Shown here piece by piece: positions 1,233 through 19,809 of a stretch of DNA of 26,634 nucleotides (the first letter of the stretch is position 1; each line of letters starts with the position of its first letter). The notes beneath the pieces were generated by a model. The model made no database searches, had not been told where the DNA came from, and was given only the letters and a program-made list of their open reading frames with translations. The stretch spans positions 1 to 26,634 of IMG/VR virus record IMGVR_UViG_3300035666_000139. The stretch is one strand, 5' to 3'. The DNA is from a virus. The position numbers and the translations under genes were made by a program.

Positions 1233-3602
1233 ATGGCAAAGCTAACGTCAAAAGGCACTTACGCCGTTTCTGACTGGTCGAACGTTGACGCCCTGTTTCC
1301 GAAAACTCGGATGGGGACTGGCGCGGAAGACTCTGACGTCACATACCAGAATGACGCCTACACGCAATTCAAGAACCTAGAGAGCGGCTACTGGCTCCAG
1401 TTTTTGCCGCAACTTGGGTTTACTGGGCCGACTACCAAAGAGGTTGTCAACTCCCCCGGCACGGAAAACGAACAAAGAACGACGACGATTTCCGACGAGG
1501 CCGCTGCTGCAATCCAGCAGTTCAAAGCGCAAGGCTACGATGTTGTCATCAATCCCAACAAGATTGATTCTGGCAAAAAAAGCGCAACCGAATTTGCGTT
1601 TAAGACGCCAGATGGCAAGTTTCAAAAGACTTGGGAATACACCGGTGGCGCATGGTACGAGCAAGTTGCTCCGTACCTTGGATTGGTGCTGCCGGGAATC
1701 CTTGGCATGGCGGGCATTACCGCCGGTAGTCTCGGGGCGTCTATCACAGGGCAAACGTCTAACACTCTGCTGAACAACGCCGTCGGCGGAGCCATTATTG
1801 GCGGCGCAAAAGAACTGATTACCAGCGGCGGGGATGTTGAGTCCGCCATCAAGGGCGCCCTGACTGGCGGCGCGCTGGGTGCTGCGGCAGAGTTGGCGCA
1901 GCCATACATCAAGGACGCCGCAAACGCACTCTCGCGGCTGACCGGCGATGAAGTCGCTCAGTTGGCCGGCACCGATGCTGCGGCAACAGACGTTGCTGGC
2001 GACGTGGGCAGCGTGGATGTAGGTGGTGGGGCGCCGTTTATTGGCGACGAATTGTTGTCGCCAACAAATTTGGACAACGCCTACGCTAGCCTGTCGGATT
2101 ACGGAAGAACCGTTTACGACGCAGAGATTTCGCTTGGCACAACGCCTGACACAGCCCTTATCAGGGCCTACAAGGCAGATGCGCTGAACTTCCCGACGAC
2201 CGGCAACGCGCTGGCGACGGGCGGCGCTGAGGCAACTGGAAATGCGCTGGCCACGGACCAAAATGCGTTAGCTGGAAATGCGCTAGCATCTGCTCAAGAC
2301 CAATTTAACTTTGCAGGATTTACCGGGCCGCAATTTGCAAGATACGACGATTTGGTATCGTCTGGGTTGCCGCCAGAGATTGCGCGCGCACAAGTGTTGC
2401 AAGAGTTTGGGGCTCTTGATGTCGGCGCAGTTACTGGCGGCGCAACAACTGGAGCCGTTACCCCGCCCGGCGGCGTGGCAACCGTTGACCTGACCGCCGC
2501 ACAAACCGCTGGCCAAACCGCAGGCGCAGGCACTGTCGCCGACGCCGGAGCCAACCTCGGAGCCGCAGGCACTGCCGCAGGCGTAGTGGGAGCGGGTGCT
2601 GCGGGCGCGGGCGTTGCGGGTACAGGAACTGCTGGCGGCGGCCTGACCGTGCCTCCAGGCGCTGGGCTTGGCAATGCCGGTGCGATTACCACGCCAGGCG
2701 GCCTTGATTCGACCGTAGCAGGCGGCGGTGGCATCACTGCCGGCACAACTGGCGGCGCCGGTCTTGACACCAGCGGCCTAGTGCTCGGCGGCGCGCTCGG
2801 CGCAGGCGCTGCGGCAGGATCTGCGTTGCCTGTGGGAAGTGCTGCGGCAGCGGGATCGGCGCTGGGCGCCGGCACTGCCGCAGGAGCAGCAGCCGGCCTC
2901 ACCGGCATCCCCGTCGTCGACGACTTCCTCAAGTACATCGGCACGCCCGCAGGCGCTGCGGCGCTGGGTGCGTTCGGCAGTCTGGCGGGCGGGTATCTGA
3001 CGGGCCAAGCGGCAAAAGACGCGGCGCAGATCCAAGCGCAGTCGGCGGCAAACGCTCTCAAACTGCAGGAAGATCAGTTCGAATACCAGAAAAGCCTGCT
3101 GGAGCCGTACCGCGCGCGTGGCGAGTCTGCGCTGAACCGCTTGGCGGGCGTCATGGGCCTCGACGGCCAAGCCGCCCAGCCGCAGCAACTGCTGGAAATG
3201 GACCCCGGCTACGCCTTCCGCCTGGGTGAGGGCATGAAAGCGCTGGAGCGCGTGCAGGCCGCGCGGGGCAACATGCTGTCTGGCGGGGCGATCAAGGCAG
3301 GCCAGCGGTACGCGCAGGACTTCGCCTCGGGCGAGTACGGCAACGCGTACAACCGGCTAGCCAACATCGCCGGATTGGGGCAAACTGTCGGCGGTCAGTT
3401 GGGCTCTGCGGCCCAGCAGTTTGGCCAGACGGCAGGGGAAACGATGTCTCAAGGCGCAAATGCACTGGCGGCGGGGCGCATCGGCCGCACCAGCGGCTAC
3501 ATGAGCGGCATCGGTGGTGCCGTGGGCGCCTATCAGAACTACCAAAACCAGCAGCAGCAGAATCAGCTGTTCCGCGACATCTACGGCCGCATGGGAGGCT
3601 GA
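1233..3602 (+). CDS. Internal virion / DNA ejection protein (large, Gly-Ala rich)
   Basis: A 789-residue protein starting at an ATG preceded by GAGGTGAATC. Residues about 150-215 are hydrophobic and glycine-rich (GILGMAGITAG and similar). Residues about 320-570 are very low complexity Ala/Gly/Thr with repeated GNALA and GAGAAG-type words. The C-terminal 180 residues carry a conserved phage 'DNA transfer protein' pattern: a Gln-rich helix, LLEPYRARGESALNRL, LLEMDPGYAFRLGEGMKALE, AARGNMLSGGAIKA, and a Gln-rich end. In podoviruses such proteins travel inside the capsid or tail and form the channel through the cell envelope during DNA ejection. Placement between the fibre and two further ejection-like genes supports this. 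The middle region could also be assembly-related rather than membrane-active. Confidence 0.75.
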   Translation: MAKLTSKGTYAVSDWSNVDALFPKTRMGTGAEDSDVTYQNDAYTQFKNLESGYWLQFLPQLGFTGPTTKEVVNSPGTENEQRTTTISDEAAAAIQQFKAQGYDVVINPNKIDSGKKSATEFAFKTPDGKFQKTWEYTGGAWYEQVAPYLGLVLPGILGMAGITAGSLGASITGQTSNTLLNNAVGGAIIGGAKELITSGGDVESAIKGALTGGALGAAAELAQPYIKDAANALSRLTGDEVAQLAGTDAAATDVAGDVGSVDVGGGAPFIGDELLSPTNLDNAYASLSDYGRTVYDAEISLGTTPDTALIRAYKADALNFPTTGNALATGGAEATGNALATDQNALAGNALASAQDQFNFAGFTGPQFARYDDLVSSGLPPEIARAQVLQEFGALDVGAVTGGATTGAVTPPGGVATVDLTAAQTAGQTAGAGTVADAGANLGAAGTAAGVVGAGAAGAGVAGTGTAGGGLTVPPGAGLGNAGAITTPGGLDSTVAGGGGITAGTTGGAGLDTSGLVLGGALGAGAAAGSALPVGSAAAAGSALGAGTAAGAAAGLTGIPVVDDFLKYIGTPAGAAALGAFGSLAGGYLTGQAAKDAAQIQAQSAANALKLQEDQFEYQKSLLEPYRARGESALNRLAGVMGLDGQAAQPQQLLEMDPGYAFRLGEGMKALERVQAARGNMLSGGAIKAGQRYAQDFASGEYGNAYNRLANIAGLGQTVGGQLGSAAQQFGQTAGETMSQGANALAAGRIGRTSGYMSGIGGAVGAYQNYQNQQQQNQLFRDIYGRMGG

Positions 3603-8913: not shown

Positions 8914-9059
8914 TTGATCCTCCTTGCCGGCACTGCCAGCAGCCAACGGTCACCCAGCAGGCGGATCGAGCGGATCCACTGCCGGGTGTTGTGTCGATCA
9001 ATCCGGCGGTCGCCGGATGCCCACAGGGCGCGTGCGCGCTTGAGCATCCGGGTGTTCAC
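8910..9059 (-). CDS. Small basic phage protein (49 aa)
   Basis: A GTG at 9059 overlaps the stop of the upstream gene as GTGA, and the TGA at 8910-8912 overlaps the next GTG. The 49-residue product has RARALWASGD, a basic RRIDRHNTRQWIRSIR stretch and LLGDRWLLA, a pattern that recurs in short proteins of temperate and virulent proteobacterial phages (usually with LGDKWLLA). It is strongly basic and may bind nucleic acid. The function is unknown. Confidence 0.65.
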   Translation of the reverse strand: MNTRMLKRARALWASGDRRIDRHNTRQWIRSIRLLGDRWLLAVPARRIK

Positions 9060-9634
9060 TCTGCTTGCTCCTCAAAGCGCGTCACGCGGAATGTGCCGAA
9101 CGGGCCGCGCTTCTCCGGGCGGAAGTCGCCGATGCCAATGCTCAGGCCGGACTGCTCCAGCAGCATCTGCGCGTCTTCGACCTTCATCAGAGTATCGTCC
9201 ACGCCGATGCTGAACTTCAGCCCCCAGCAGTCAAACCTGGGGCGGTGCCGCATCACGCGACCCTTGGTGGCGGGGATCGTGACCGGCCGTGAGTCCACCT
9301 CGTAATCGGTAGCGGGGCCAGAGCCGTTCATCACCGTGATGGTGGGCTCAAAGATGCGGATCGCGCTAGGCACGATGAACCGCATCGACTTGCGCGACCC
9401 GGGCATTTTGTAGTTCGTGCCGGCCGCCCCCATCGCGTTGGGGATGGCGAACGCGCTGATGTAGAACGTTCCGTCAGGGTGACGGTAGGCAACCTTCTCC
9501 GCCTGCTCGCGTGGAGTGCCTCGGTTCTGCACCACGCCGCGCGCCTTGCCGCTGCTGGAGGTCTCGGCGTCCTCGCCGAAACGGTGCATCAGAAGAGGTT
9601 GAATGCCACGAATTTCAATGCTGATCAGTTTCAC
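9056..9634 (-). CDS. Conserved phage protein, RAMP/Cas7-like features, recombination operon
   Basis: A 192-residue protein from a GTG at 9634 with GGAG seven bases upstream; a longer frame to 9661 lacks a site. The N-terminal strand ISIEIRGIQPLLMHRF, the YISAFAIPNAMGAAG segment and the C-terminal glycine-rich loop GIGDFRPEKRGPFGTF followed by a strand resemble the ferredoxin-like RAMP fold of Cas7-type proteins. I recall homologues in many proteobacterial prophages, always without an assigned role. Here it is in the leftward operon with RecT and a YqaJ exonuclease, so a single-strand nucleic-acid-binding role is an attractive inference. No catalytic residues are evident. It follows the pentamer array. 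Confidence 0.65.
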   Translation of the reverse strand: MKLISIEIRGIQPLLMHRFGEDAETSSSGKARGVVQNRGTPREQAEKVAYRHPDGTFYISAFAIPNAMGAAGTNYKMPGSRKSMRFIVPSAIRIFEPTITVMNGSGPATDYEVDSRPVTIPATKGRVMRHRPRFDCWGLKFSIGVDDTLMKVEDAQMLLEQSGLSIGIGDFRPEKRGPFGTFRVTRFEEQAE

Positions 9635-9677
9635 GTCAAATCTCCGTTGGTTAAAACACACTCACATTTGGGCGAAA

Positions 9678-9910
9678 TTGCCCTGCCTTGCCTCGCCGCG
9701 CCTCGCCACGCCAGGCCGTGCCTCGCCACGTACCATGCCTTGCCAAGCCCCGCATCGCCATGCCGTGCCCCGCCTGGCCGAGCCACGTACCTTGCCATGC
9801 CACGCCGTGCCGCGCCTCGCCTTGCCGTGCCAGGCCGTGCCGCGTACCTTGCCTTGCCAAGCCTCGCCTGGCCTCGCCTCGCCCTGCCTAGCCATGCCCG
9901 GCCATGTACC
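9678..9910 (-). repeat. Pentanucleotide array (GGCNN)n with 57-bp higher-order period
   Basis: On the plus strand the segment is 41 pentamers NNGCC; 40 match and one (9750-9754) is CCGCA. They fall in blocks of 10, 10, 10 and 11 (9678-9727, 9735-9784, 9792-9841, 9849-9903). Each block is closed by a 7-base separator ending in GTACC (9728-9734, 9785-9791, 9842-9848, 9904-9910). The leftward transcript is therefore GGTACNY(GGCNN)10 repeated four times, mostly at 57 bases. The two N positions vary freely, so this is not a simple slippage repeat. It fills the gap between the HTH gene and the RAMP-like gene in an operon otherwise packed with 4-base overlaps. Confidence 0.95.
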
Positions 9911-9914
9911 ACGA

Positions 9915-10091
9915 TCAACGCTCGGCCTCGGCCTCGTAAGCCAGCACGTCAGCCAAGCGGTAACGGGCCTGGCCACCGATCTTCAGCCACGTCGGGCCTT
10001 TGCCCTGGTGTCGCCAGTTCTCCAGCGTGCCCACGGCGACCTTCCACCTGGCGGCCAGTTCTTCGGTGGTCAGGAGTTCGTCTTCGTTCAT
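9915..10091 (-). CDS. HTH_17/excisionase-type small DNA-binding protein
   Basis: A 58-residue protein. The ATG at 10091 overlaps the RecT stop as ATGA. The sequence LLTTEELAARWKVAVGTLENWRHQGKGP followed by KIGGQARYRLADVLAYEAE is the standard MerR-like winged helix of the HTH_17 / excisionase family: TEELA helix, VAVGTLENWR recognition helix, then the wing RYRLADV. Such proteins can be Xis-like recombination directionality factors or small transcription regulators. With no integrase in the window, a regulator of the recombination operon is as likely as excision. It ends five bases before the pentamer array. Confidence 0.8.
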   Translation of the reverse strand: MNEDELLTTEELAARWKVAVGTLENWRHQGKGPTWLKIGGQARYRLADVLAYEAEAER

Positions 10092-10867
10092 ACCGCGCCC
10101 TCCTCGGCGTCAATGATCTCGGCATCCACCGGTGGTGCCTGCTCGGTTCGCGGTGCCTGCTCGGCGTCAATCTCGTCGGCGCGGCGCTGCACTGCGGCTA
10201 CCACGCGGTCGCGGTCCTTACCCTTGGGCACGCGGCGCATTTGTGGGCGCAACAATTCCAAAAACTCTCGCGTGGCGGCAGATTTGATTGTCTTGATTAG
10301 CGCATCCACGTCAACTGCGGGCGGCGCAGGAATTGCTGGCGCAGGATCGGCAACTTCCTCGGCGTTGCCCATGTCGCGCACGATAGTTTGCGGGGCCATG
10401 TCTTGACCTTCCTCCTCAGAATAGGTGCCGACAACAACGCCCGGAAACACGGTGCGAATACCTTCCGAAATGCAGCGAGAACGCAGCATCTGCCGTGGAT
10501 ACTTTGTCCACGTCTGATTGCCCAACAGGCCGGCCTTGCGACCCATCTCGACGGTCCACTCAATGGTGACGCTGCCGCCTTTGGGGTGCGAAAACGTACC
10601 GACCACGCGCTGGTCCGTGTAGTCGCTCCATTCCACCTTGCCGCCTGCGGTCTGGAAGCGAGCCAACATGGCGTCGGCCTTCAGCGTGGGCCGGCCGTTG
10701 ATGACGTGGTAATCGCGGGCGGCGATGGCCGGGTGCATTCCCTCGGCCTGCGCGATCAGCATCAGGGCCATCGCTTGGTCGGGCGTCTTGACGCCGAACA
10801 GGCCGGACTTTGCGACGGCCAGCGCCATGCGCTCGACTTGGTCTACGGGGATCAGTGCGGTGCTCAT
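10088..10867 (-). CDS. recT: RecT-family single-strand annealing protein
   Basis: A 259-residue protein from the ATG at 10867 with GGAAAG upstream. The order of motifs fits RecT/Bet: TPDQAMALMLIAQAEGMHP, then AARDYHVINGRPTLKADAMLARF, a Gly/Trp-rich core with WSDYTDQRVVGTF and VTIEWTVEMGRKAGL, then WTKYPRQMLRSRCISEGIR and a GVVVGTYSEEE segment; the C-terminus is charged and variable. RecT anneals complementary single strands and promotes strand invasion together with a 5'-3' exonuclease. The YqaJ-type exonuclease is 284 bases upstream in the same operon, with one small gene between. The symbol denotes the family. Confidence 0.88.
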   Translation of the reverse strand: MSTALIPVDQVERMALAVAKSGLFGVKTPDQAMALMLIAQAEGMHPAIAARDYHVINGRPTLKADAMLARFQTAGGKVEWSDYTDQRVVGTFSHPKGGSVTIEWTVEMGRKAGLLGNQTWTKYPRQMLRSRCISEGIRTVFPGVVVGTYSEEEGQDMAPQTIVRDMGNAEEVADPAPAIPAPPAVDVDALIKTIKSAATREFLELLRPQMRRVPKGKDRDRVVAAVQRRADEIDAEQAPRTEQAPPVDAEIIDAEEGAV

Positions 10868-10905: not shown

Positions 10906-11154
10906 TCAGTCAGTCAGGCCCGGGCTTTCTTCGGCCGGGACGGCTTCGGGCAGGCCCACGGTTTCCACCATAACGCCAGAGGCCATCAGCGAGATGATGT
11001 CGTCGTGCGTGGCGGGCGCGATCACGAATTGCGGCGTGACGTGGCGCAGCACGTCGGCCACGGTGTAAGCCCGCACCAGTCGCTCGTTGCCCTCTGCGTC
11101 CATCACGGTCCACGCCTTCATCACGCGCGTGTAAGTGCGCTTCTTGTCGCTCAT
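10906..11154 (-). CDS. Small protein of recombination operon, unknown function
   Basis: An 82-residue protein. The ATG at 11154 overlaps the exonuclease stop as ATGA and has GGAAGGAAAG just upstream. The N-terminus is basic (MSDKKRTYTRVMKAW), followed by two short strand-like segments and an acidic C-terminus. No family is recognised. Its fixed place between the exonuclease and RecT suggests a small adaptor or modulator of the recombination pair, but this is only context. Confidence 0.65.
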   Translation of the reverse strand: MSDKKRTYTRVMKAWTVMDAEGNERLVRAYTVADVLRHVTPQFVIAPATHDDIISLMASGVMVETVGLPEAVPAEESPGLTD

Positions 11155-11789
11155 TGCTTTCCTTCCGCAAGACGCCGCAGCGCCTCGACTTTTTCGCCGA
11201 CCTCCGACAGAAACAACGTGATGCGACCTTCGAGGTCGGCGATAAACGCCGCATCACGGGGAATACGCTGAACGTACAGCTGCAATGGCTCGGGCATACG
11301 CGGGTCATACGACACGAAATCGCACCACTGGCGGCCGGTGATCCACATCTGGCCCTGTACCTGTGGCATGTGATCTGCGGGCATTCCGCCCAGCAGCGTC
11401 TCGATGTGGACCGCGCTGTTGTACGGGCACTTGATCTCAATCAGTCCGTCCCAGTCCACCAGGCCGTCAGGCGAGCAGCCGGCATACAGGACGTCGTGGG
11501 CGACGAAGCCCGTCTCCTCCACCTCAGTGCCCGTGTGGGCCTCGTACGCGGCACGCGCTGCAAATTCCTGCTGGGTGCCCCAGAGCATGGCGGCAGTGGT
11601 GAACTTCTGGATAGCGCGACCGGTCAGGCGCTCGACGACCAGTTCGGTGAGGTAGTCCTTCGCTGCCTGCGCCGGCTTGTTGCCGCCTTTCAGCGTGGCC
11701 ATCGCGTCGCGGAAACGGCTGGCGGTAACCTTGCCGCATCTAGCGGCGTACCAGTCGTCGGAACGCTGGTCTGCGGTTTCGAGGATCAT
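11151..11789 (-). CDS. YqaJ/lambda-exonuclease-family 5'-3' exonuclease
   Basis: A 212-residue protein from the ATG at 11789, which has AAGGAG eight bases upstream; the extension to 11969 lies in the next gene. QRSDDWYAARCGKVTASRF is the usual N-terminal YqaJ motif. PD-(D/E)XK nuclease residues are visible: E75 in GTQQE, D108 in GCSPDGL and E118-x-K120 in LIEIKCP, followed by the VQGQMWITGRQWCDFVSYDPR helix-strand typical of the family. It resects double-strand ends to give 3' single strands for RecT. The gene order exonuclease, small gene, recT, all leftward, is a standard phage recombination module. Confidence 0.92.
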   Translation of the reverse strand: MILETADQRSDDWYAARCGKVTASRFRDAMATLKGGNKPAQAAKDYLTELVVERLTGRAIQKFTTAAMLWGTQQEFAARAAYEAHTGTEVEETGFVAHDVLYAGCSPDGLVDWDGLIEIKCPYNSAVHIETLLGGMPADHMPQVQGQMWITGRQWCDFVSYDPRMPEPLQLYVQRIPRDAAFIADLEGRITLFLSEVGEKVEALRRLAEGKQ

Positions 11790-11802
11790 GCTGCGGTCTC
11801 CT

Positions 11803-12207
11803 TCAGAACCAGAAGTGGTTGTCGTCGCACTGGGCGCGCTTGATCTCGTCCTCATAGCGTTCCCAAGCGCGGCTGGTGATATCGCCGTCCTTGGCCCGCA
11901 GGTAGCGGGCACGCAGCTCATACACTGCGGGCACGATGCGGTCGATGTGGCCGGCGAACACCAGGGCAATCAACTGATCGGCAGTGGCCTGCTGCAACTC
12001 GGCCGGCACGGCCGTCAGGTCAAGTGGCGTCTCGTCGGTGGTCGCCTCGTGGGCCAACCAGTCAGTGATGAACAGCGGCGTCCTCAGCATGTCGTCCTTG
12101 GCCGCCTCGATGTCGAGGTCGATGTCCTCATAGTCATACCTCGGGTCATGGGGATGACCCGTATACGGGCCGTAGTCCGGGTCGTAGTAGGCTTGGCTGA
12201 TCCTCAT
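11803..12207 (-). CDS. First gene of leftward operon, unknown function
   Basis: A 134-residue protein started at the ATG at 12207 (GGAG six bases upstream), preferred over the ATG at 12249, which has no such site and lies in the control region. The N-terminal 50 residues are rich in Tyr, Asp and Pro (YYDPDYGPYTGHPHDPRYDYEDIDLDIE is the region, at residues 7-34) and strongly acidic. The middle is helical, with ATADQLIALVFAGHI and a charged C-terminus ending in aromatic residues. No family is recognised. Being promoter-proximal, it should be among the earliest products; an acidic DNA-mimic role is conceivable but unsupported beyond composition. Confidence 0.6.
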   Translation of the reverse strand: MRISQAYYDPDYGPYTGHPHDPRYDYEDIDLDIEAAKDDMLRTPLFITDWLAHEATTDETPLDLTAVPAELQQATADQLIALVFAGHIDRIVPAVYELRARYLRAKDGDITSRAWERYEDEIKRAQCDDNHFWF

Positions 12208-12362
12208 CGTCTGCTCCTGTTTTGTTTGGGGACGGACGGATGTTGCCACGATGGCCCACGATGGTCAACTACAATCGACGCAATAACCCACTATTCCACG
12301 CGGGCTTTGCGAGCGGCGGCGACGGTGGCATGATGCGAGCCCCGACGACGATGGGATAGACG
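12208..12362. promoter_or_regulatory. Divergent promoter/operator region with CCACGATGG repeats
   Basis: This 155-base gap separates the leftward recombination operon from the rightward replication operon. It holds two direct copies of CCACGATGG exactly one helical turn apart (12246-12254 and 12256-12264). Two more GACGATGG words lie at 12347-12354 and 12359-12366, the last overlapping the rightward start codon. A leftward -35-like TTGACC (complement of 12263-12268) is followed after 17 bases by a weak -10-like CAACAT (complement of 12240-12245), which puts the tandem repeats within the spacer. A TACAAT (12270-12275) could serve rightward transcription. An operator for a phage repressor is inferred. 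Confidence 0.5.
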
Positions 12363-12923
12363 ATGGACAGGAAAACGAAAGCACTGATTGATGGACTGCC
12401 GCCTGCGCTGCGCAACCTGCTGTTGACGCGCACTGAGGAGGAGGGCGAGTGCCTGATCTGGACAGGGATGACCTGCGCAGCGTTCACGCGAGTGCCGCGC
12501 TGCCACTACGACTCTACCGGCGCGCACACAAAAGCCTCGCGCTCGCTGCGGCGCACGATTGCCGAGGCAATGGCGGGCAAGCCGTTGGGCAAGTTCGTGG
12601 CGTCCTGTATGTGCGGCACGCCGCTGTGCGTGCATCCCGCTCACCTAAGTGTGATGACCAGAAAAGCCGCGATGCAGCGGGCGTCGGCCGCAGGCAAGAT
12701 CAAGGGCGCGGCAACGACTGCGCGCAATCGTCTGAGCGGGCTGCGCCGGCGCAAACTCAACGACGATCAGATTCGGGAGATCCTGGCCCGCAGCGACGAA
12801 TCGCAGTCGCGCCTGGCGCTGGCGTACGGCGTCTGCCGCGCGACGATCGGCAACATCTTGCGCCGCAAACGGCGCGCGTCAGATGATATTTGGTCCGCTG
12901 TTTTTGCGAGGCTGGCAGCATGA
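12363..12923 (+). CDS. HNH-like zinc protein with C-terminal HTH, catalytic His replaced
   Basis: A 186-residue protein. Residues about 60-105 match the phage HNH pattern of the 'CgnPlCvnPeHL' type (SLRRTIAEAMAGKP, CGTPLCVHPAHL). In active relatives a V.H.C precedes this; here the run is VASCMC, so the usual His position is Cys. Residues about 140-180 form an HTH tail (LNDDQIREIL, QSRLALAYGVCRATIGNILRRKR) seen in homing nucleases and resolvase-like proteins. It is the first gene of the rightward operon and overlaps the VRR-NUC gene by ATGA. It may be a weak endonuclease or a DNA-binding regulator derived from one. Confidence 0.75.
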   Translation: MDRKTKALIDGLPPALRNLLLTRTEEEGECLIWTGMTCAAFTRVPRCHYDSTGAHTKASRSLRRTIAEAMAGKPLGKFVASCMCGTPLCVHPAHLSVMTRKAAMQRASAAGKIKGAATTARNRLSGLRRRKLNDDQIREILARSDESQSRLALAYGVCRATIGNILRRKRRASDDIWSAVFARLAA

Positions 12924-13402
12924 CAGAACGAGGCAGACGCACCCTGCGCGAGCAGATGCTCCGCAATCAGGCAACCGAAAACCTGTACGCCGCACTCAGC
13001 GGCAAACCGGCGCGGGAACTGCCGATACCGGCAGAGCCGAAAAAACGCGCACCAGCGCAGCCGTCAGGCGAGCCGAGCGAGGCCGAGATCCTGCGGGCGA
13101 TCGTGCAGCTGCTGAAGCGGCACCCGAAAGTCGCCATGTCGTGGCGCCAGAACTCCGGCACTTTCCAAGAGCGCAACCGCGACGGCAGCGTGCGCTATAT
13201 CCGGGCGAACACCCAGCGCGGCATGAGCGACATTATGGGCACGCTGAAGGACGGGCGCACGCTGGCCATCGAGGTCAAGTCGCGCACCGGCCGCATGAGG
13301 CCCGGGCAGGAGGAGTTCCTCGCGTCGATCCGCGCTGCGGGTGGCGTGGCGGGGGTTTGCCGCAGTGTTGAGGATGCAATCAGGCTGTTGGAGGGCGAAT
13401 GA
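12920..13402 (+). CDS. VRR-NUC domain nuclease
   Basis: A 160-residue protein from the ATGA overlap at 12920. After a basic N-terminal 50 residues, the VRR-NUC fold is clear: helix with E55 (SEAEILRAIVQLL), WRQNSGTF, RANTQRGMSDIMGTL with D104, TLAIEVKS with E118 and K120, GQEEFL with Q130, and the closing GGVAGVCRSVEDAIRLL. The family are PD-(D/E)XK structure-specific nucleases, standalone in many phages and a domain in FAN1. It probably resolves branched or flap DNA during phage replication. It is coupled to both neighbours by 4-base overlaps. Confidence 0.9.
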   Translation: MTERGRRTLREQMLRNQATENLYAALSGKPARELPIPAEPKKRAPAQPSGEPSEAEILRAIVQLLKRHPKVAMSWRQNSGTFQERNRDGSVRYIRANTQRGMSDIMGTLKDGRTLAIEVKSRTGRMRPGQEEFLASIRAAGGVAGVCRSVEDAIRLLEGE

Positions 13403-14529
13403 ATGAGTTGGCTCTTTTCGCGGGCGCTGGTGGAGGCATACTCGGAGGCCACCTCCTCGGGTGGCGAACCGTCTGCGCCGTTGAGTGGGAACCCTACGCC
13501 GCAAGCGTTCTTGCCGCCAGACAGAATGACGGCCTTTTCCCGCCCTTCCCGATTTGGGATGACGTTCAGTCCTTTGACGGAAGACCTTGGCGCGGCAGTG
13601 TTGATGTGGTGTCAGGAGGCTTCCCGTGCCAAGACATCAGCGTGGCCGGCAAGGGAGCAGGCATTGACGGAGCCCGCAGCGGAATGTGGGGGCACATGGC
13701 GCGGATCGTTGGCGAGGTTCGACCCCGCTACGTCTTCGTGGAGAACAGCCCAGCCCTCCTTACTCGAGGACTTGGGCGAGTCCTCGGTGACCTGGCCGCG
13801 CTCGGGTACGACTGCCGCTGGACAGTGCTGGGAGCTGCCGACGTTGGCGCCCCGCACCAGCGGGATCGGTTCTGGCTTGTCGCCAGACGGAGTGAAGACG
13901 TTTCACACGTTGAACACGAGCGGGCTGGATGGGGGGAGCAACAGCCGGAGGGCTTTGGCGAAAAGAGCAGAGTGGCCGACGCCGCGAGCGGGGAACCCTG
14001 GCAGTCGCCCGAACGGAAAGGGAGGCAAAGTGCTGGCCGAGGAGGTGGAGATTGCGGCAGGACTGAGGCAGCGCGGGGAGAGGATGTGGCCCACGCCGAC
14101 AACCATGCGCGGCATTACGAAAGAAGCCGCCGAGAAGGAGTGGGATCGGAAGGGGAGCGCGGATCTGCGCATGGCAGTGCATTTGTGGCCCACGCCGAGA
14201 GCCAGCGAAAACGATCAGGGCCGCAAAGCAGATGGGATGATGGACGGGGAAAGCAGTTGGAAGGCGCAGGGCCGTGGGGCGACGCTTACGACTGCGGTTT
14301 TGAGATGGACTACACCCACGGCGCACAACGCCAAGGGAACGAATGCTCCCAGCGAGAACGACCGGAACACGCCGACATTGGCGGCGCAGGTTGGTGGGCA
14401 ACTGAACCCGACGTGGGTCGAGTGGCTCATGGGGTGGCCGCTCGGGTGGACAGACTTAAAGCCATTGGAAACGGGCAAGTCCCCCTTTGCGCCGCAACAG
14501 CATTCAAATTACTGACGGAGACGGCATGA
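13399..14529 (+). CDS. dcm-like: DNA (cytosine-5) methyltransferase
   Basis: A 376-residue protein from the ATGA overlap at 13399. C5-methyltransferase motifs are in order: motif I LFAGAGGG (residues 6-13, SAM binding), motif IV GGFPCQDIS with nucleophile C77, motif VI ENS (115-117, usually ENV), motif VIII QRDRFW (154-159) and motif IX-X RLKAIGNGQVP (about 352-362). Between VIII and IX, where a target-recognition domain is expected, the sequence is low complexity, polar and punctuated by VADA/VAHA words. It probably methylates phage DNA against host restriction. The whole gene also contains another long frame (13403-14515). It is followed by the primase with an ATGA overlap. Confidence 0.92.
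   Translation: MNELALFAGAGGGILGGHLLGWRTVCAVEWEPYAASVLAARQNDGLFPPFPIWDDVQSFDGRPWRGSVDVVSGGFPCQDISVAGKGAGIDGARSGMWGHMARIVGEVRPRYVFVENSPALLTRGLGRVLGDLAALGYDCRWTVLGAADVGAPHQRDRFWLVARRSEDVSHVEHERAGWGEQQPEGFGEKSRVADAASGEPWQSPERKGRQSAGRGGGDCGRTEAARGEDVAHADNHARHYERSRREGVGSEGERGSAHGSAFVAHAESQRKRSGPQSRWDDGRGKQLEGAGPWGDAYDCGFEMDYTHGAQRQGNECSQRERPEHADIGGAGWWATEPDVGRVAHGVAARVDRLKAIGNGQVPLCAATAFKLLTETA
13403..14515 (+). CDS. Nested overlapping ORF, 'MSWLFSRALV' phage protein family
   Basis: A 370-codon frame lies wholly inside the methyltransferase gene, shifted by one. Its ATG at 13403 directly follows the VRR-NUC stop codon, so it is placed for reinitiation. The N-terminus MSWLFSRALVEAYSEA, the FDPATSSWRTAQ and TWPRSGTT segments, repeated WPTPRA/WPTPTT words, and the end QLNPTWVEWLMGWPLGWTDL match, as I recall, a phage and prophage protein family annotated as separate genes of unknown function. 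No domain or catalytic motif is recognised. Either both frames are translated or the recalled family consists of shadows; overprinting is my preferred reading. Confidence 0.6.
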   Translation: MSWLFSRALVEAYSEATSSGGEPSAPLSGNPTPQAFLPPDRMTAFSRPSRFGMTFSPLTEDLGAAVLMWCQEASRAKTSAWPAREQALTEPAAECGGTWRGSLARFDPATSSWRTAQPSLLEDLGESSVTWPRSGTTAAGQCWELPTLAPRTSGIGSGLSPDGVKTFHTLNTSGLDGGSNSRRALAKRAEWPTPRAGNPGSRPNGKGGKVLAEEVEIAAGLRQRGERMWPTPTTMRGITKEAAEKEWDRKGSADLRMAVHLWPTPRASENDQGRKADGMMDGESSWKAQGRGATLTTAVLRWTTPTAHNAKGTNAPSENDRNTPTLAAQVGGQLNPTWVEWLMGWPLGWTDLKPLETGKSPFAPQQHSNY

Positions 14530-16865
14530 AACTCGATTTCTCCGCGCTTGCGCAGCGCCTTCTTCTCGGCAGCGAAACCCTCGTCCCGCAGTGGCTCCCC
14601 GGCGGCAGGCGCAGAGGCCATGAGTGGGTCTGCGGCGACCTGGCGGGCGGCGAGGGAACCTCGCTGAGCGTCAACCTGCTGTCGGGCCTGTGGGCCGATT
14701 TCGCCACAGACGACAGGGGCGGCGACCTCATCTCGCTCTACGCCGCGATCCACGAACTCACGCCCGGCGAGGCATACCGGGAACTCGACGACGGCAGCAC
14801 GGCCGAGCCGCCAGCGCGACCAGCGAAACCGACAAAACCGCAGCGCACCGTGGTCACGCCAGTGCCCGAGGCGGCAGCGGACTGCGAGTGTGTACACCCG
14901 CTATACGGCGCACCGTCGGCCCGCTGGACGTACTGGGACGGCAACGGGGAGGTGCTGGGCTACGTCGCCCGGTACGACCCGGCAGGGCAGCGCAAACAGA
15001 TTGTGCCGTGGACCTGGGACGGCAACCAGTGGGGAATGGGCCAGTGGCCGGTTCCGCGCCCGCTGTACCGGCTACAGGAACTGGAGGCCCGCAGCGCAGA
15101 CCCGGTGCTGATCGTAGAGGGCGAGAAAGCCGCAGACGCGGCGGCGGCGATCAGCGGGCCGTACGTCGCCGTGACCTGGCCCGGTGGAGGGCAGGCCGTC
15201 AGCCGCGCCGACTGGCGGCACGTCCACGGGCGCAAAGTCCTCCTGTGGCCCGACGCCGACGAACCCGGCATCCAGACCATGCAGCGCCTGGCGGCGATGC
15301 TGGCGCCGCACTGCCCGGAGGTCAAGATCATCGACCCGGCAGGGATGCCTGACGGCTGGGACGCTGCGGATAGCGGGTTCGCCAGCTGGGCCGAGGCGCG
15401 GGCTTGGATCGCGCCGCGCACCAGCGTCTACACGCAGCAGCCGGAACCCGAGCCGCCGAAACCGGCGGGGCCGGATGAGCCGCAGAGCGAGGAACACGCG
15501 CAAGCGCAGGCCGCAGCAGACAAGCGCGATCCGTCGCTGCTGGAGGTCGGCGAGTGGCACAAGCGCTTCGCCTACGTCGTGCCGGACGATGCTTATTTCG
15601 ACATCCAGCAGTGTGTCGAGTACACGCGCAATTCGTTCAACGCGCTGTATCGGCACGTCCGGTGCCACTCAATCCACGCCAGTGCATCAGGCGCAGCGCG
15701 CCGGGTCGAGGCGGCCACCAGTTACGACGAAAACCGAGCGGCGATGCGCGGTCGGATACTGCAGGGGATTACCTATGCGCCTGGGCGCGCGGTCCTGTGC
15801 GAGCACGTCGGACAAGTGTATGGGAACAAATGGCGCAACGCCCGCCCGGACTGCGTGGGCGGCGATCCTGGCCCGTGGCTGGCGCACGTCGAGCGGCTGA
15901 TCTCGGACCCGGCAGAGCGCGCGCACCTGCTCGACGCGATGGCGTTCAAGGTCCAGCATCCCGGCGTCAAAATCAATCACGCGCTGCTCATCGGCGGCGT
16001 TCCTGGCGCGGGGAAAGACAGCATGATCGCGCCCCTGCTGTACGCGATTGGCGGGGAAAACAAGACCAACTGCACCAGTGTCGAGGCCGCAGAATTGCAG
16101 CAGGTCTGGGGATATTTCCTCGAAAACGAGGTGATTATTTTTAACGAACTGCGGCAGTCTGAGGCGATCGACCGTCGCGCGCTGGAAAACCGGCTAAAGC
16201 CCATCCTGGCCGCGCCGCCGGAACTGCTGACGGTGCAGCGCAAGGGTCAGCATCCGATACAGGTCCTGAATCAGGCGCTCGTCATCGGCATGACGAACTA
16301 CCGGGACGCGATCGCGATCCCGTCGGAGGATCGGCGCTGGTGGGTGACCTGGACCGACGCCCCGAGGATGCGCGAGGAAGATTCGCTCGCCCTGTGGGCC
16401 TATTTCAAGGCCGGTGGTTTGCAGGCCGGTGCAGCATACCTGCGGCAGCGTGACGTTAGCCGGTTCAATCCGGCGGCGACCCCGCCGTGGACCGATGCAA
16501 AGTCGATCATGGTCGGCAGCGCGCGCACGTCGGCAGAATCTTGGATCATTGAGCGCATCGAAAAGAAAGCGTTGGACTTCCGGCACGGTTTCGCCGCAGG
16601 CCCCTGGCAGGCGCTGGTTGATCGGCTACAGGATCACGCGCCGCAGAATGTCAGGCTGAACGTCCCCGCACTGCTGCACGCGCTGTCTGAATGCGGGTGG
16701 ACCGACGTCGGGCTGGTGAAGACGAAGCGCTATGGCACGCGCCGTCATATGTGGCTATCACCAGACTGGCGCGGCACGAAGACCGAGGCCAGGGACGCGG
16801 CAGAGACGGCGCACACTGCGACCGTCCACCCGTTCCGACCGAATTACCGCACCGCTGACGACTGA
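14526..16865 (+). CDS. Primase-helicase (TOPRIM plus SF3/DUF5906 helicase)
   Basis: A 779-residue protein from the ATGA overlap at 14526. Residues about 30-75 resemble a primase N-terminal nucleic-acid-binding region (SGLWADFATDDRGGDLISL). A TOPRIM domain follows with VLIVEGEK (194-201, Glu198) and DAD (243-245). After a Pro/Glu linker (about 305-345) comes an SF3-type helicase: Walker A GGVPGAGK (490-497), Walker B VIIFNEL (536-542) and TNYRDAIAIPSEDRRW, typical of the DUF5906 helicase core. A C-terminal winged-helix-like part ends the protein. It likely primes and unwinds DNA at the phage origin. It is the main replication gene of the rightward operon; no phage DNA polymerase is seen here. 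Confidence 0.92.
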   Translation: MKLDFSALAQRLLLGSETLVPQWLPGGRRRGHEWVCGDLAGGEGTSLSVNLLSGLWADFATDDRGGDLISLYAAIHELTPGEAYRELDDGSTAEPPARPAKPTKPQRTVVTPVPEAAADCECVHPLYGAPSARWTYWDGNGEVLGYVARYDPAGQRKQIVPWTWDGNQWGMGQWPVPRPLYRLQELEARSADPVLIVEGEKAADAAAAISGPYVAVTWPGGGQAVSRADWRHVHGRKVLLWPDADEPGIQTMQRLAAMLAPHCPEVKIIDPAGMPDGWDAADSGFASWAEARAWIAPRTSVYTQQPEPEPPKPAGPDEPQSEEHAQAQAAADKRDPSLLEVGEWHKRFAYVVPDDAYFDIQQCVEYTRNSFNALYRHVRCHSIHASASGAARRVEAATSYDENRAAMRGRILQGITYAPGRAVLCEHVGQVYGNKWRNARPDCVGGDPGPWLAHVERLISDPAERAHLLDAMAFKVQHPGVKINHALLIGGVPGAGKDSMIAPLLYAIGGENKTNCTSVEAAELQQVWGYFLENEVIIFNELRQSEAIDRRALENRLKPILAAPPELLTVQRKGQHPIQVLNQALVIGMTNYRDAIAIPSEDRRWWVTWTDAPRMREEDSLALWAYFKAGGLQAGAAYLRQRDVSRFNPAATPPWTDAKSIMVGSARTSAESWIIERIEKKALDFRHGFAAGPWQALVDRLQDHAPQNVRLNVPALLHALSECGWTDVGLVKTKRYGTRRHMWLSPDWRGTKTEARDAAETAHTATVHPFRPNYRTADD

Positions 16866-16924
16866 AACATGGCCGTCGAACTACACGACATCCATCATCA
16901 ACTCAACCACAAGGAACCGCTACC

Positions 16925-17152
16925 ATGCGCGACACTGAAGACATCGCTTACGCAATCAGTAGGTTGGCCGCAGCCATCACCCCGACGAATGCGATTCCGT
17001 TCAAAGGTCCACTGGGGCATCAGGTCGGCAGCTTGACCGAGGCCATTATTTACGCCGCAGATACGATTGCCGACTCAATCAATCGACTGGAATTTATGGT
17101 TGAGGAGGTGCGCGACGCGATCGCGGAACTCAATCCTCCTGCCGGCAAGTGA
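16925..17152 (+). CDS. Small protein after primase, unknown function
   Basis: A 75-residue protein with AAGGA ten bases before its ATG, 59 bases after the primase stop. It is mostly helical with heptad-like spacing (AIIYAADTIADSINRLEFMVEEVRDAIAEL), suggesting a small coiled-coil oligomer. No family is recognised. It is the last rightward gene before the switch to the leftward operon; its TGA abuts the A-tract of the leftward terminator. Confidence 0.65.
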   Translation: MRDTEDIAYAISRLAAAITPTNAIPFKGPLGHQVGSLTEAIIYAADTIADSINRLEFMVEEVRDAIAELNPPAGK

Positions 17153-17187
17153 AAAAACGCCCCCGGGAGACTAGCTCAACCGGGGGC
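17151..17187 (-). terminator. Intrinsic terminator of the leftward small-gene operon
   Basis: GCCCCCGG (17159-17166) pairs with CCGGGGGC (17180-17187) around a 13-base loop. Read leftward, this 8-bp GC stem is followed at once by GTTTTTTC (complement of 17151-17158), the classical Rho-independent layout. Read rightward there is no T-tract, so it should stop mainly the leftward operon that begins near 19349, keeping it from running antisense into the primase gene. Confidence 0.8.
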
Positions 17188-17243
17188 CGAACGGGCTTTC
17201 ACCCGAGGAGACAGACGACCGGCCACGCGGGCCGGCGTGCGCA

Positions 17244-17306
17244 TTATAGGTCCAGCAGCAGCGCCAGCAGCAGGGCAATCAGAATTGCCAGCAGGGCGGC
17301 GATCAC
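17244..17306 (-). CDS. 20-residue hydrophobic micro-protein, coupled
   Basis: The GTG at 17306 overlaps the stop of the upstream gene (GTGA), and the frame ends at a TAA (17244-17246). The product is almost entirely Leu, Ile and Ala with a terminal Asp-Leu, long enough to span a membrane once. It is the last gene before the leftward terminator. Its overlap and composition suggest real expression, for example as a membrane-modulating micro-protein, but a chance open frame cannot be excluded. Confidence 0.45.
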   Translation of the reverse strand: MIAALLAILIALLLALLLDL

Positions 17307-17560
17307 GGCTCGAACTCCAATGCAGCCGCAAGCGGCGCATCGCGCCAGGAGCCGCAGGCAGCGCGCACGGCGGCGTCCTCTGCGGCATACCATAGCCGCA
17401 CCAGAGGCGGGGAGAAAATCAGCCCGTCTCGGCGTAGCAGGGCGTGACGGTGCGCTACCTCGGGGTTGACGTCGGCCTGCGCGAAAACCGCTTCGGCGGC
17501 GGCGATGCCGCGCGCTAGGTCGTCTGGCGGACGTTCAATATTTTTGAATGTCAGGGGCAT
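17303..17560 (-). CDS. Small phage protein, unknown function
   Basis: An 85-residue protein. The ATG at 17560 overlaps the upstream stop as TAATG, with GGAG eight bases before it. It is helical and acidic-to-neutral, with LRRDGLIFSPPLVRLWYAAEDAAV near the middle. No family is recognised. It belongs to a leftward set of tightly spaced small genes. Confidence 0.65.
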   Translation of the reverse strand: MPLTFKNIERPPDDLARGIAAAEAVFAQADVNPEVAHRHALLRRDGLIFSPPLVRLWYAAEDAAVRAACGSWRDAPLAAALEFEP

Positions 17561-17838
17561 TACTTTTCTCCAGTAGCGCGGGCGATGGCGGCGCGGGCAG
17601 CGCTAATCGCATTGGCAAGGCTGTCGCCGCAATTCGCGTCAGACGACTCGATGATGCTGCGCAACGCTGCCAGCAGATCAGGCGCGGCAGCGATCAGGCG
17701 GGCATTAGAGTTTACATTTCCACTTTCATTAGACAGCGTTGCAATATCGAACATTTCTCCATCGAATTCGGTTCTGATGAACTCCGCTTCATCGCATGAA
17801 TGGTCAATTTCTATCGTCCAGGGTCCAGGGGTATGCAT
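17560..17838 (-). CDS. HTPGPW-type phage protein
   Basis: A 92-residue protein. The ATG at 17838 (MHTPGPW) is chosen because the GGAG site is seven bases upstream; an ATG two codons earlier would be too close to it. The start HTPGPWTIE and the later NARLIAAAPDLLAALRSI segment are hallmarks of a very widespread family of small phage and prophage proteins of unknown function. The N-terminal part looks like a small beta domain and the C-terminal part like a helical hairpin. It lies among other early-type small genes. Confidence 0.8.
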   Translation of the reverse strand: MHTPGPWTIEIDHSCDEAEFIRTEFDGEMFDIATLSNESGNVNSNARLIAAAPDLLAALRSIIESSDANCGDSLANAISAARAAIARATGEK

Positions 17839-17852
17839 CGTCATTCTCCAGG

Positions 17853-18011
17853 TCAAAACAGCGCCACCGGAACATCATCCGGCGGCGGGCTATAGCGCGG
17901 CACAGGACGCGCGCCAGGGGGCTGGACGGGGTAGTCCAGCAGCGAGGGTGGAAAAGGCCACACAGGCCCGCGCAGGGGCTGCGTGGGCCGGGTCTGCGGA
18001 ATCGGGGTCAC
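17853..18011 (-). CDS. Small proline-rich protein, unknown function
   Basis: A 52-residue frame whose GTG at 18011 overlaps the stop of the upstream micro-ORF (GTGA). About a third of the residues are proline (for example PPSLLDYPVQPPGARP). It has no recognisable domain. The coupling and the close fit between its neighbours argue for translation; it could be a disordered adaptor. Confidence 0.5.
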   Translation of the reverse strand: MTPIPQTRPTQPLRGPVWPFPPSLLDYPVQPPGARPVPRYSPPPDDVPVALF

Positions 18012-18097
18012 AGCGCGAAACCGATCAGCGCGCCCAGGGCGAGGCCGATCAGAACAGCGCCGATGAGGTCGGCCAGGGTGAGGGGGATATCGTGCAT
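18008..18097 (-). CDS. 29-residue glycine-zipper membrane micro-protein
   Basis: The ATG at 18097 is preceded by GGAGGG six bases upstream, and the TGA at 18008-18010 overlaps the next GTG. After a short polar start (MHDIPLTLAD), the rest is one hydrophobic segment with glycines at 13, 18, 22 and 26, giving GxxxGxxxG, a pattern used for tight helix packing in membranes. It may oligomerise in the inner membrane (for example as an exclusion or pinholin-like factor). The family is unknown. Confidence 0.55.
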   Translation of the reverse strand: MHDIPLTLADLIGAVLIGLALGALIGFAL

Positions 18098-18099
18098 GG

Positions 18100-18258
18100 T
18101 CAACCCTCCACGCGATCCAGAGCCGCCAGCGCGGCAGGCAGGGCGAGCCATTCCGTCAGCGGCAGCACGTCAGCAGCGCGACCCGGGCGCAGGGTGACGC
18201 GCTGCACCTGATATAGGCCGGCACGCGTGGCAGATTGCAGGGCTAGCAGGGTTTCCAT
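18100..18258 (-). CDS. Small phage protein (52 aa), unknown function
   Basis: The ATG at 18258 has GGAG seven bases upstream. The 52-residue product has an amphipathic N-terminal helix, a strand YQVQRVTLRPGRAADVLPL and a Leu/Ala-rich C-terminal helix. It ends two bases before the next ATG. No family is recognised. Confidence 0.6.
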   Translation of the reverse strand: METLLALQSATRAGLYQVQRVTLRPGRAADVLPLTEWLALPAALAALDRVEG

Positions 18259-18274
18259 CGTCTATCTCCAGTAA

Positions 18275-18293
18275 GCCCGGCACCATGCCGGGC
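18275..18293. promoter_or_regulatory. Intergenic hairpin in leftward operon
   Basis: GCCCGGC (18275-18281), loop ACCAT, GCCGGGC (18287-18293): a perfect 7-bp stem in the 74-base gap between two small leftward genes. No T-tract follows on either strand, so it is more likely an mRNA-processing or pausing element than a terminator. Confidence 0.45.
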
Positions 18294-18332
18294 GAATTAG
18301 TGTCGGCGGGCTGGCTTACGCCACGCTGACGT

Positions 18333-18524
18333 CTACTGTGGCCAGTGGCGCACGATCGCACCATCTGGCGCGCGCAGGGTCACCTTATGCGGGCCGCTCG
18401 GCGCGTGCGCGTAGGCCCATGAGGCATCAGCGTAGGCTTCGAGCGCCTCGCGTTCGGTGGCGTATTGGTCTTCGACCTTACCCGTCCAATCGGGCGAGCG
18501 GAAATACTGGGTCAGGGTGTACAT
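18333..18524 (-). CDS. Small phage protein (63 aa), unknown function
   Basis: The ATG at 18524 is preceded by AAGGA seven bases upstream. The 63-residue product begins MYTLTQYFRSPDWTGKVEDQ, has a helix TEREALEAYADASWAY and a strand pair HKVTLRAPDGAIVRHW, so it should be a compact alpha/beta domain. No named family is recognised; the pattern is reminiscent of small phage proteins that begin with a strand-helix unit. Confidence 0.65.
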   Translation of the reverse strand: MYTLTQYFRSPDWTGKVEDQYATEREALEAYADASWAYAHAPSGPHKVTLRAPDGAIVRHWPQ

Positions 18525-18590
18525 CTGTCTGTCCTTTCATTCGCGCGGGATCGCACGCTGATACCCGGCACGCCGGGTAACGGCCTACGA

Positions 18591-19349
18591 TCAAACGGCA
18601 GGCTGGATCGCGATAACCCGGCGCGCGTGCCCGGTCGCATGATCGGCGATCACAATCGATCGCGCGCGCTTCGTGGTCCCTGCGCAGAGCATGCAATCGG
18701 AACACTGCGCCTTACGGCCACCTTCGGCACTCGCCGGGCATGTGACTTCACGATCCTGACGGTCGACACCATTCGACACCCGGAAATACCGCATGCCGAT
18801 TGACTCGGCCTGCCGGGCTTCAGCGCGCGTATCGGCAGAGGCCATCACCAATGGCGACCACGCTGCAGCGTCAAACCCGACGGCCTGCCATTGGTGCGTA
18901 TAACCAACGTGGCCATCGGCCATCGATGCCAGCATGCGCCACAGGTCGACCGGCGCAGCTGCAGGATCACCATATGACCCGATACGCAGTCGACGGCCTG
19001 CAAGCGCTTCGCGCACTTGATCAACCGTCTCGGCACGCGCGTATGACCCGCGCCGAAACGCGCGGTATATCGACAACGGGGCTTCGCCCGTCCTAACATA
19101 GCAGGGTGACGACGGCAGACCCGCGCGAGCAAGCATGCTGGCCAGTAGGGGGCGATGCGGACACTGTCCGCAGACCGACGCATCGTCGCCGGTTTTCGCC
19201 GCAGTGTGCGGTTCCACGTCGGCGCGCAGGATCCACGACTGGATCAATTCGCCGGTCTTAGCATTCTTCGACCCGCGCGCCTTCAAGCCCGTCAGGATCA
19301 CCACAATCGGCCTGCCGTCGATCGCCGACGGCCCACGGTAAACAATCAT
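18591..19349 (-). CDS. Conserved Cys-rich phage protein, possible TIM-barrel-like, unknown function
   Basis: A 252-residue protein from the ATG at 19349 with GGAG eight bases upstream; the ATG at 19418 lies in the leader and is rejected. It starts MIVYRGPSAIDGRPIVVILTG and has two Cys groups: CGQCPHR...CYVR near the first third, and CPAS...CSDCMLCAG near the C-terminus. Between them come strand-like motifs LRIGSYGDPAAAP, VGYTHQW, LVMASADT and RYFRVS, suggesting a beta/alpha barrel. I recall close relatives in many phages (possibly labelled DUF7227), all without a known role. Metal or iron-sulfur binding by the Cys groups is inferred. It is the first gene of the leftward small-gene operon. Confidence 0.75.
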   Translation of the reverse strand: MIVYRGPSAIDGRPIVVILTGLKARGSKNAKTGELIQSWILRADVEPHTAAKTGDDASVCGQCPHRPLLASMLARAGLPSSPCYVRTGEAPLSIYRAFRRGSYARAETVDQVREALAGRRLRIGSYGDPAAAPVDLWRMLASMADGHVGYTHQWQAVGFDAAAWSPLVMASADTRAEARQAESIGMRYFRVSNGVDRQDREVTCPASAEGGRKAQCSDCMLCAGTTKRARSIVIADHATGHARRVIAIQPAV

Positions 19350-19363
19350 CGTCTGTACTCCGC

Positions 19364-19404
19364 GCGGGTCTATCGCCCGCAGTGTCTGCGCCGACCATCG
19401 GCGC
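19364..19404 (-). promoter_or_regulatory. Two tandem hairpins in the leader of the leftward operon
   Basis: GCGGG (19364-19368) pairs with CCCGC (19376-19380) over a 7-base loop, and GCGCCGA (19388-19394) pairs with TCGGCGC (19398-19404) over a 3-base loop. Both lie in the 5' leader of the 18591-19349 gene, just upstream of its ribosome-binding site. The second is a near-perfect 17-base palindrome and could be a protein-binding operator; together they could shield the ribosome site. Confidence 0.4.
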
Positions 19405-19468
19405 CACACCGGCATCATCGCCGCCGAACCTTACGCAAAACTTACAGCTTCCAGGCGGGGGCGAAATC

Positions 19469-19809
19469 GGGGGGGCTACGGTTTCGGGGGTGTTCCCTCT
19501 AGGGGGGCAGCGGGGGGCTATGGTTTCATCTACAGGTTTAGGACTGTGTGTTTAGCAGGGGGAATGCGGGGGGCTACGCCCCCCATAGCCCCCCAGCCCC
19601 CCGAGACCATCCCGGGGGCAGCGGGGGGCTACGCCTACGCTACTGGGGGGTGCAGTCTGACCATAGCCCCCGATAGCCCCCGCCCGATGGGGGGCAGCGG
19701 GGGGCTACGTTTGCAGAAGAGAACCCGGCGGTTCGACGATAGCCCCCGATGGCCCCCCGATGATGCGAGATAGAGCCCGGGGGCGCCGGGGGGCTACGCG
19801 ATAGCCCCC
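19469..19809. repeat. G-tract inverted-repeat array (GGGGGGCTA / TAGCCCCC)
   Basis: GGGGGGCTA occurs at 19470, 19512, 19568, 19623, 19699 and 19788, often within the longer word CAGCGGGGGGCTACG. Its complement TAGCCCCC occurs at 19586, 19664, 19674, 19740 and 19802. Adjacent copies can form strong hairpins, such as GGGGGGCTA (19568-19576) with TAGCCCCCC (19586-19594), and 19789-19796 with 19802-19809. The array fills a gene-free stretch between the divergent leftward operon and the terminase genes. It could be a packaging recognition site, replication origin, or transcription barrier. The many G-runs also allow G-quadruplex formation. Confidence 0.85.

What the first reader, a model, noticed from the sequence alone, without database searches (positions are those of the whole stretch)
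9678..9910. NNGCC pentamer array with a 57-bp superperiod inside the recombination operon
Forty of 41 pentamers keep GCC while two positions vary freely, and every tenth or eleventh pentamer is followed by a 7-base separator ending in GTACC, resetting the phase. Slippage alone would give identical units, so the pattern suggests selection for spaced GGC on the transcribed strand with a 57-base module. It sits in an operon otherwise free of gaps, between an HTH gene and a RAMP-like gene and next to recT. It could be a recombination hotspot, a binding array for the neighbouring proteins, or a structured RNA.
Basis: seen in the sequence. Interest (0 to 1): 0.8.

Follow-up and report, generated by a model that had tools for sequence, protein, structure and literature searches.

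The report
Phage VIPR guide-RNA array
The odd five-letter repeat is a row of guide-RNA genes of a VIPR system, a recently described relative of CRISPR that phages use against rival phages; this is a new example of it, not a new kind of system.

Summary
The array is real: 41 pentamers at 9678-9910, 40 with GCC, in modules of 57, 57, 57 and 62 bp, each ending in NNGTACC. On the gene strand it reads GGCNN. It is not a recombination site. The next gene (9056-9634, minus, 192 aa) has a Csm3/Cas7 (RAMP) fold, and its family profile hits the solved 'SUSP1 Vipr protein' (PDB 36pp, E 3.7e-17). A 2026 preprint (PMC13142463) describes VIPR: a phage RAMP protein loaded with RNAs of alternating GGY/NN, whose NN letters recognise DNA noncontiguously and silence competing phages. 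Of 161 loci with this protein, 157 have GGY/NN runs on its strand (708 runs, against 2 on the other strand). In close module pairs, 41 of 45 differences fall in NN. I found no natural target for this phage's guides. The window's own features are GGTAC phase-shift junctions, one short 3' hairpin and a neighbouring HTH gene. Verdict: new member of a known, very recently described kind.

The parts
9678..9910 (-). vrRNA array: four modules GGTAC-NN-(GGCNN)10-11; in transcription order 9910-9849, 9848-9792, 9791-9735, 9734-9678
   Evidence: transcription inferred
9670..9683 (-). short hairpin GGGCAATTTCGCCC right after (and overlapping) the last module, candidate 3' tail
   Evidence: kept with 4 or 5 pairs in two sublineages; folds no better than shuffles in the window (z 0.26)
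9056..9634 (-). vipr gene, 192 aa, 21.3 kDa, GTG start after GGAG (start inferred)
9915..10091 (-). 58-aa HTH-like gene between recT and the array; candidate vipr-accessory protein (vap), or simply a phage HTH gene
   Evidence: translation; related ORFs upstream of Vipr in 35 loci (family 3); no Pfam hit for a 49-aa part of it; HTH label by eye
10088..10867 (-). RecT-like annealing protein, neighbour, not part of the system as far as the evidence goes
   Evidence: phrog_561 E 4.6e-31

Best explanation
This is a phage-borne VIPR system. The minus-strand array is transcribed and gives one guide RNA (vrRNA) per module. Vipr, the Cas7-like protein encoded just downstream, coats each vrRNA, holding each GGY triplet and leaving the NN dinucleotides free. 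The NN letters together pair with double-stranded DNA in which one base is skipped between dinucleotides. Binding silences genes of competing phages or prophages. Shown here: architecture, strand polarity, constraint on GGY, free NN, fold, and homology to Vipr. Inferred from the published SUSP1 and P. fulva systems: transcription, loading, the one-base-skip rule, silencing and inter-phage use.
For: Family profile hits PDB 36pp 'SUSP1 Vipr protein' E 3.7e-17. Fold is Csm3/Cas7: Foldseek E 2.4e-6, Z 11.4, rmsd 4.5 A, 166 residues. GGY/NN runs on the gene strand in 157 of 161 loci, 708 sense runs v 2 antisense. 79 of 107 loci found by the DNA pattern alone hold the protein; 68 of 72 new loci found by the protein alone hold sense runs. 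Differences between close modules: 1 at GG, 3 at Y (all C/T), 41 at NN. Module content changes between close relatives. The published definition (alternating GGY/NN, 9-16 repeats, RAMP protein, phage genomes) fits.
Against: No target found: 0 exact hits in IMG/VR for four 9-NN patterns at the published spacing, no excess over shuffles in 2.46 Mb. No long structured tail between modules as in SUSP1. No certain vap gene. First N is purine-rich (64%), not fully free. One locus (L179) has its array on the other strand.
Confidence: 0.92

Rival explanations
1. The array RNA is only a coat or self-regulatory site: Vipr polymerises on GGY every 5 nt, much as TRAP binds GAG repeats (recalled), to control its own message, and NN is filler.
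For: GGY is constrained and NN is not; array lies in the leader of the gene; no target found.
Against: The published relative uses NN as guide in binding and reporter tests. Arrays are often downstream of the gene or split by other genes, which does not suit a leader switch.
Confidence: 0.05
2. Recombination hotspot or DNA binding array for RecT or the HTH protein.
For: RecT and exonuclease genes lie upstream and related ORFs occur in 40 loci each of those surveyed (families 1 and 2).
Against: Array and Vipr occur together without a recT annotated nearby in mycobacteriophages Saal and LittleE. Polarity follows the Vipr gene, 708 runs v 2.
Confidence: 0.02
3. Neutral short-tandem-repeat expansion.
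For: Pentamer periodicity; module number varies among close relatives.
Against: Slippage gives identical units, but all 16 NN types occur; GG changes once in 45 differences; arrays go with one protein family in 49 of 51 cluster representatives by the automatic test.
Confidence: 0.01

Closest known systems
VIPR (Viral Interference Programmable Repeat), SUSP1 type, bioRxiv 2026.04.26.720920 (PMC13142463; text parts 1-3 of 4 read, supplement not)
   Same: RAMP protein of about 20 kDa, phage-encoded, arrays of alternating GGY/NN in the gaps beside the gene; 11 GGY or more per unit
   Different: Modules are divided only by a GGTAC phase shift, with one short hairpin after the last instead of a structured tail per vrRNA; vap not certain; type not assigned. 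The preprint names staggered arrays with overlapping vrRNAs (its fig. S18, not seen), which may be the same thing
Type III-A CRISPR Csm3 and type VII Cas7
   Same: Predicted fold of the protein; oligomer on an RNA is expected
   Different: No CRISPR repeats or contiguous spacers; 5-nt period with fixed GGY in place of a 6-nt footprint (latter recalled)
TIGR-Tas (PMC12045711, search listing only)
   Same: Guide arrays in phages outside CRISPR
   Different: Different protein and array; here a RAMP fold and GGY/NN pentamers
TRAP (recalled)
   Same: A protein oligomer reading a triplet about every 5 nt, 11 per unit
   Different: Unrelated protein as far as known; TRAP spacers carry no targeting information

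Membership tests
VIPR | RAMP-family Vipr protein with RRM-like core and glycine-rich loop | tested here: met
   profile hit to SUSP1 Vipr, E 3.7e-17; Csm3-like model; invariant GxGDFRPEKxGxFGxF stretch
VIPR | thumb domain | not tested
   the model was not dissected
VIPR | alternating GGY/NN repeats, 9-16 per vrRNA, in gaps beside vipr, same strand | tested here: met
   10-11 GGC plus one out-of-phase GGT per module; polarity
VIPR | hypervariable NN with conserved GGY | tested here: met
   45 differences: 1 GG, 3 Y, 41 NN, over all clusters surveyed
VIPR | invariable structured 3' tail | tested here: inconclusive
   one conserved short hairpin after the last module only, z 0.26
VIPR | vap accessory gene | tested here: inconclusive
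   HTH gene 9915-10091 is a candidate; the phrog_15946 partner was found in 15 of 51 clusters, not in the window's
VIPR | found in phage or provirus genomes | tested here: met
   virus record with terminase and portal
VIPR | vrRNA expressed and bound by Vipr | not testable with these tools
   needs RNA sequencing and pull-down
VIPR | DNA targets at one-base skip in competing elements | tested here: inconclusive
   no target; searches were limited
CRISPR-Cas class 1 | CRISPR repeats with contiguous spacers | tested here: not met
   the array is GGY/NN pentamers; no repeat-spacer array among the tandem repeats of the window
CRISPR-Cas class 1 | several cas genes together | tested here: inconclusive
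   20 window ORFs scanned with PHROGs show none named as Cas; the 201-aa ORF has no PADLOC hit; other ORFs were not scanned against Cas models

The most novel reading that the evidence does not exclude
The window shows a distinct compact guide layout: several vrRNAs set head to tail, divided only by a GGTAC two-base phase shift, with a single short hairpin after the last. One transcript would carry several guides whose ends are set by the protein filament losing register rather than by a tail, hairpin or ribozyme, and guides turn over faster than the surrounding phage genome.
Probability: 0.3. Interest if true: 0.55.

Novelty: new member of a known kind. Interest (0 to 1): 0.47.

Why it matters
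VIPR is proposed as a forerunner of CRISPR and, in the papers searched here, appears only in a 2026 preprint. This locus adds a phage lineage with a different array layout, and the survey adds carriers among mycobacteriophages, a Gordonia phage, a cyanophage and many uncultivated phages. The strand polarity and the GGY constraint were seen in a set assembled before the preprint was found. Close relatives with different modules make the turnover of inter-phage guides directly testable.

Tried and rejected
Recombination hotspot and DNA binding array: rejected, see rivals. RNA structure inside modules: rejected, mean z -0.015 over 292 modules against pentamer-order shuffles. Protein-coding reading: open frames through GGCNN are trivial because stops need rare NN values (own reasoning). 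Rfam: nothing in the window.

Target searches. Own locus DNA at spacings 5, 2, 3, 6 (294 runs of 9 or more units in 51 representatives): mean ranks 0.534, 0.513, 0.527, 0.507, no excess. One search had a masking error that made its spacing-5 result worthless; discarded. Held phage DNA: 572 ten-pentamer windows against 1.06 Mb at spacing 5 and 2, 3, 4, 6, 7, no clear excess (spacing 3: 45 v 32 at 17/20 or more). 487 full runs at spacings 3, 5, 4: spacing 3 had six scores above 8.3 against one for shuffles, not convincing. 111 runs of the window's cluster against 2.46 Mb including 80 related phages: 17/18 matches 7 v 3 (spacing 3), 4 v 1 (5), 12 v 1 (2, in redundant loci), 5 v 0 (4), so no spacing stands out. 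IMG/VR: 0 hits for four 9-NN patterns. An 8-NN pattern gave 94 stretches; the commonest hits are one peptide family (HDVKIVETLVDAD and the like), and no hit fits more than 4 of the 6 following guide letters (93 hits): taken as chance. Own record with up to 3 mismatches: none.

Gene-level nucleotide differences were computed on misaligned frames and are not used; only its module distances are. The partner family phrog_15946 occurs in 15 of 51 clusters, not beside the window's gene. Genome contigs: 12 stretches with the array pattern, of which 2 hold the protein; the rest were not studied.

Full report
Observation. The array is present as described. Read on the minus strand, the direction of the neighbouring genes, each module is GGTAC followed by NNGGC pentamers. 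GGTAC-NN-GGC is a step of 7 instead of 5, so every module starts in a new phase.

Surroundings. The genes here are on the minus strand: exonuclease (11151-11969) and RecT (10088-10867) by PHROGs, a 58-aa HTH-like gene (9915-10091), the array, and a 192-aa gene (9056-9634). The 201-aa reading of the last gene belongs to phrog_4652, unknown function, with no Pfam hit and no PADLOC hit. The record is a 26.6-kb virus record with terminase and portal genes.

Linkage. A DNA pattern GTACC(NNGCC)5 gave 107 stretches in IMG/VR; 79 of the 107 hold a homologue of the 192-aa protein. Starting from the protein instead gave 77 loci, 72 of them under new locus ids; 68 of these 72 have GGY/NN runs of 8 or more units on the gene strand. 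Pooled with 7 annotated phage loci, 2 genome loci and the window there are 161 loci in 51 clusters at 60% identity. The same pair is in mycobacteriophages Saal, Donkeykong, Quico, Brocalys and LittleE, cyanophage Cy-LDV1 and Gordonia phage Trine (homology). The cassette sits in different places; in LittleE it lies between tape measure and tail genes on the other strand.

Polarity and constraint. Over all 161 loci there are 708 sense runs in 157 loci and 2 antisense runs in 2 loci. One of the two, L179, lies just upstream of the gene and is a real exception; L194, L203 and L204 have no run at this threshold. In the 51 representatives, 326 runs hold 3,946 pentamers: 2,938 GGC, 672 GGT, the rest departures from GGY, and all 16 dinucleotides are used. 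In core pentamers the first N is purine-rich (64%) and the second nearly even. Among 25 pairs of nearly identical modules, differences are 1 at GG, 3 at Y (all C/T) and 41 at NN. Many loci were found through the array itself, so linkage is best judged from the protein-found set; polarity is not affected by that choice.

Protein. AF2 with 42 aligned homologues gives pLDDT 83.4 and pTM 0.79. Best matches in the PDB are Csm3 and type VII Cas7 (Foldseek E 2.4e-6; Z 11.4 at 4.5 A over 166 residues). The profile search of PDB sequences finds 36pp, 'SUSP1 Vipr protein', E 3.7e-17 (listing and alignment only). A tblastn of the window's protein finds 126 phage records, mostly Escherichia and Salmonella phages including Felixounavirus, at about 25% identity.

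Known system. [quoted passage not shown] I read parts 1-3 of its 4-part text, not the supplement. It describes Vipr, vrRNAs of 9-16 YNNGG repeats with a 3' tail, recognition of double-stranded DNA by NN with one skipped base, silencing, and targets in satellites and prophages. Searches under other words had missed it. Before finding it I had written the discontinuous-guide hypothesis in the notebook, with the wrong spacing (5).

What is particular here. Close relatives (Vipr 99% identical) have 3-5 modules. L140 is identical to the window in all four modules. In the eight other full-length relatives compared, three of the four window modules have no near counterpart (best per-base distance 0.18-0.29, about what unrelated modules would give since GGC is fixed; own estimate), and the fourth is at 0.06-0.10. 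GGTAC junctions between modules occur in 2 of 51 clusters, whereas most compact junctions elsewhere are shifted by 4, an overlap of one base (95 of 119 in the representatives). After the last module a hairpin of 4-5 pairs is kept in two sublineages but folds no better than shuffles in the window. No promoter- or terminator-like site was found at 9560-10200.

Targets. None found; details and failed controls are under Tried and rejected. Loci L171 and L173 gave reciprocal 17/18 matches at the published spacing. In one of the two the skipped base is the codon wobble position; the other lies in no long frame. With 7 such matches against 3 in shuffles I do not claim them.

Verdict. A VIPR locus: new member of a known kind, with an array layout worth comparing with the types in the preprint.

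Noticed in passing
L136 (mycobacteriophage LittleE) 1470-3085; L139 (Gordonia phage Trine) 2850-3100; L104 at 7068: Separators between GGY/NN modules hold stem-loops like the T-arm of tRNA (GTTCGANTC between G+C stems): 5 sense matches in 17.6 kb of separators against 14 sense in 514 kb elsewhere, and 0 antisense in the separators. This would suit cutting by host tRNA enzymes. Rfam found no tRNA at L136 1250-3250.
   Followed up: partly
L088, separators downstream of the Vipr gene: Modules are divided by about 43-nt hairpins (GGGCCGCAC...GTGCGGATTTGC) whose inner stem differs between copies yet seems to keep pairing (by eye; fold z -2.0 to -4.5 in six copies against simple shuffles).
   Followed up: partly
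L133 3795-4250, L137 3400-3981 and 13 other clusters: A second gene of family phrog_15946 (unknown function) lies downstream of Vipr in 15 of 51 clusters, a candidate accessory (vap) gene.
   Followed up: partly
L179 5798-5912: The only array close to a Vipr gene on the opposite strand (23 units, 19 GGY).
   Followed up: no
L171 2538 and L173 7535: Two Vipr phages whose guides each match the other's DNA 17 of 18 letters at one-base skip; may be chance.
   Followed up: partly
NZ_CP054613.1 2497251-2497805 (Paenibacillus cellulosilyticus, 2.7-Mb record in the plasmid collection): A Vipr homologue (27% identity, E 2e-8) where no gene is listed.
   Followed up: no
L157 2971-3040, minus strand: Rfam int-alpA RNA match just above the gathering score (36.8 v 35.8).
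   Followed up: no
window 13399-14529: DNA methyltransferase gene (phrog_363); this stretch gives the best nucleotide matches of window 12000-19900 in known phages (70-79% identity among the rows shown).
   Followed up: no
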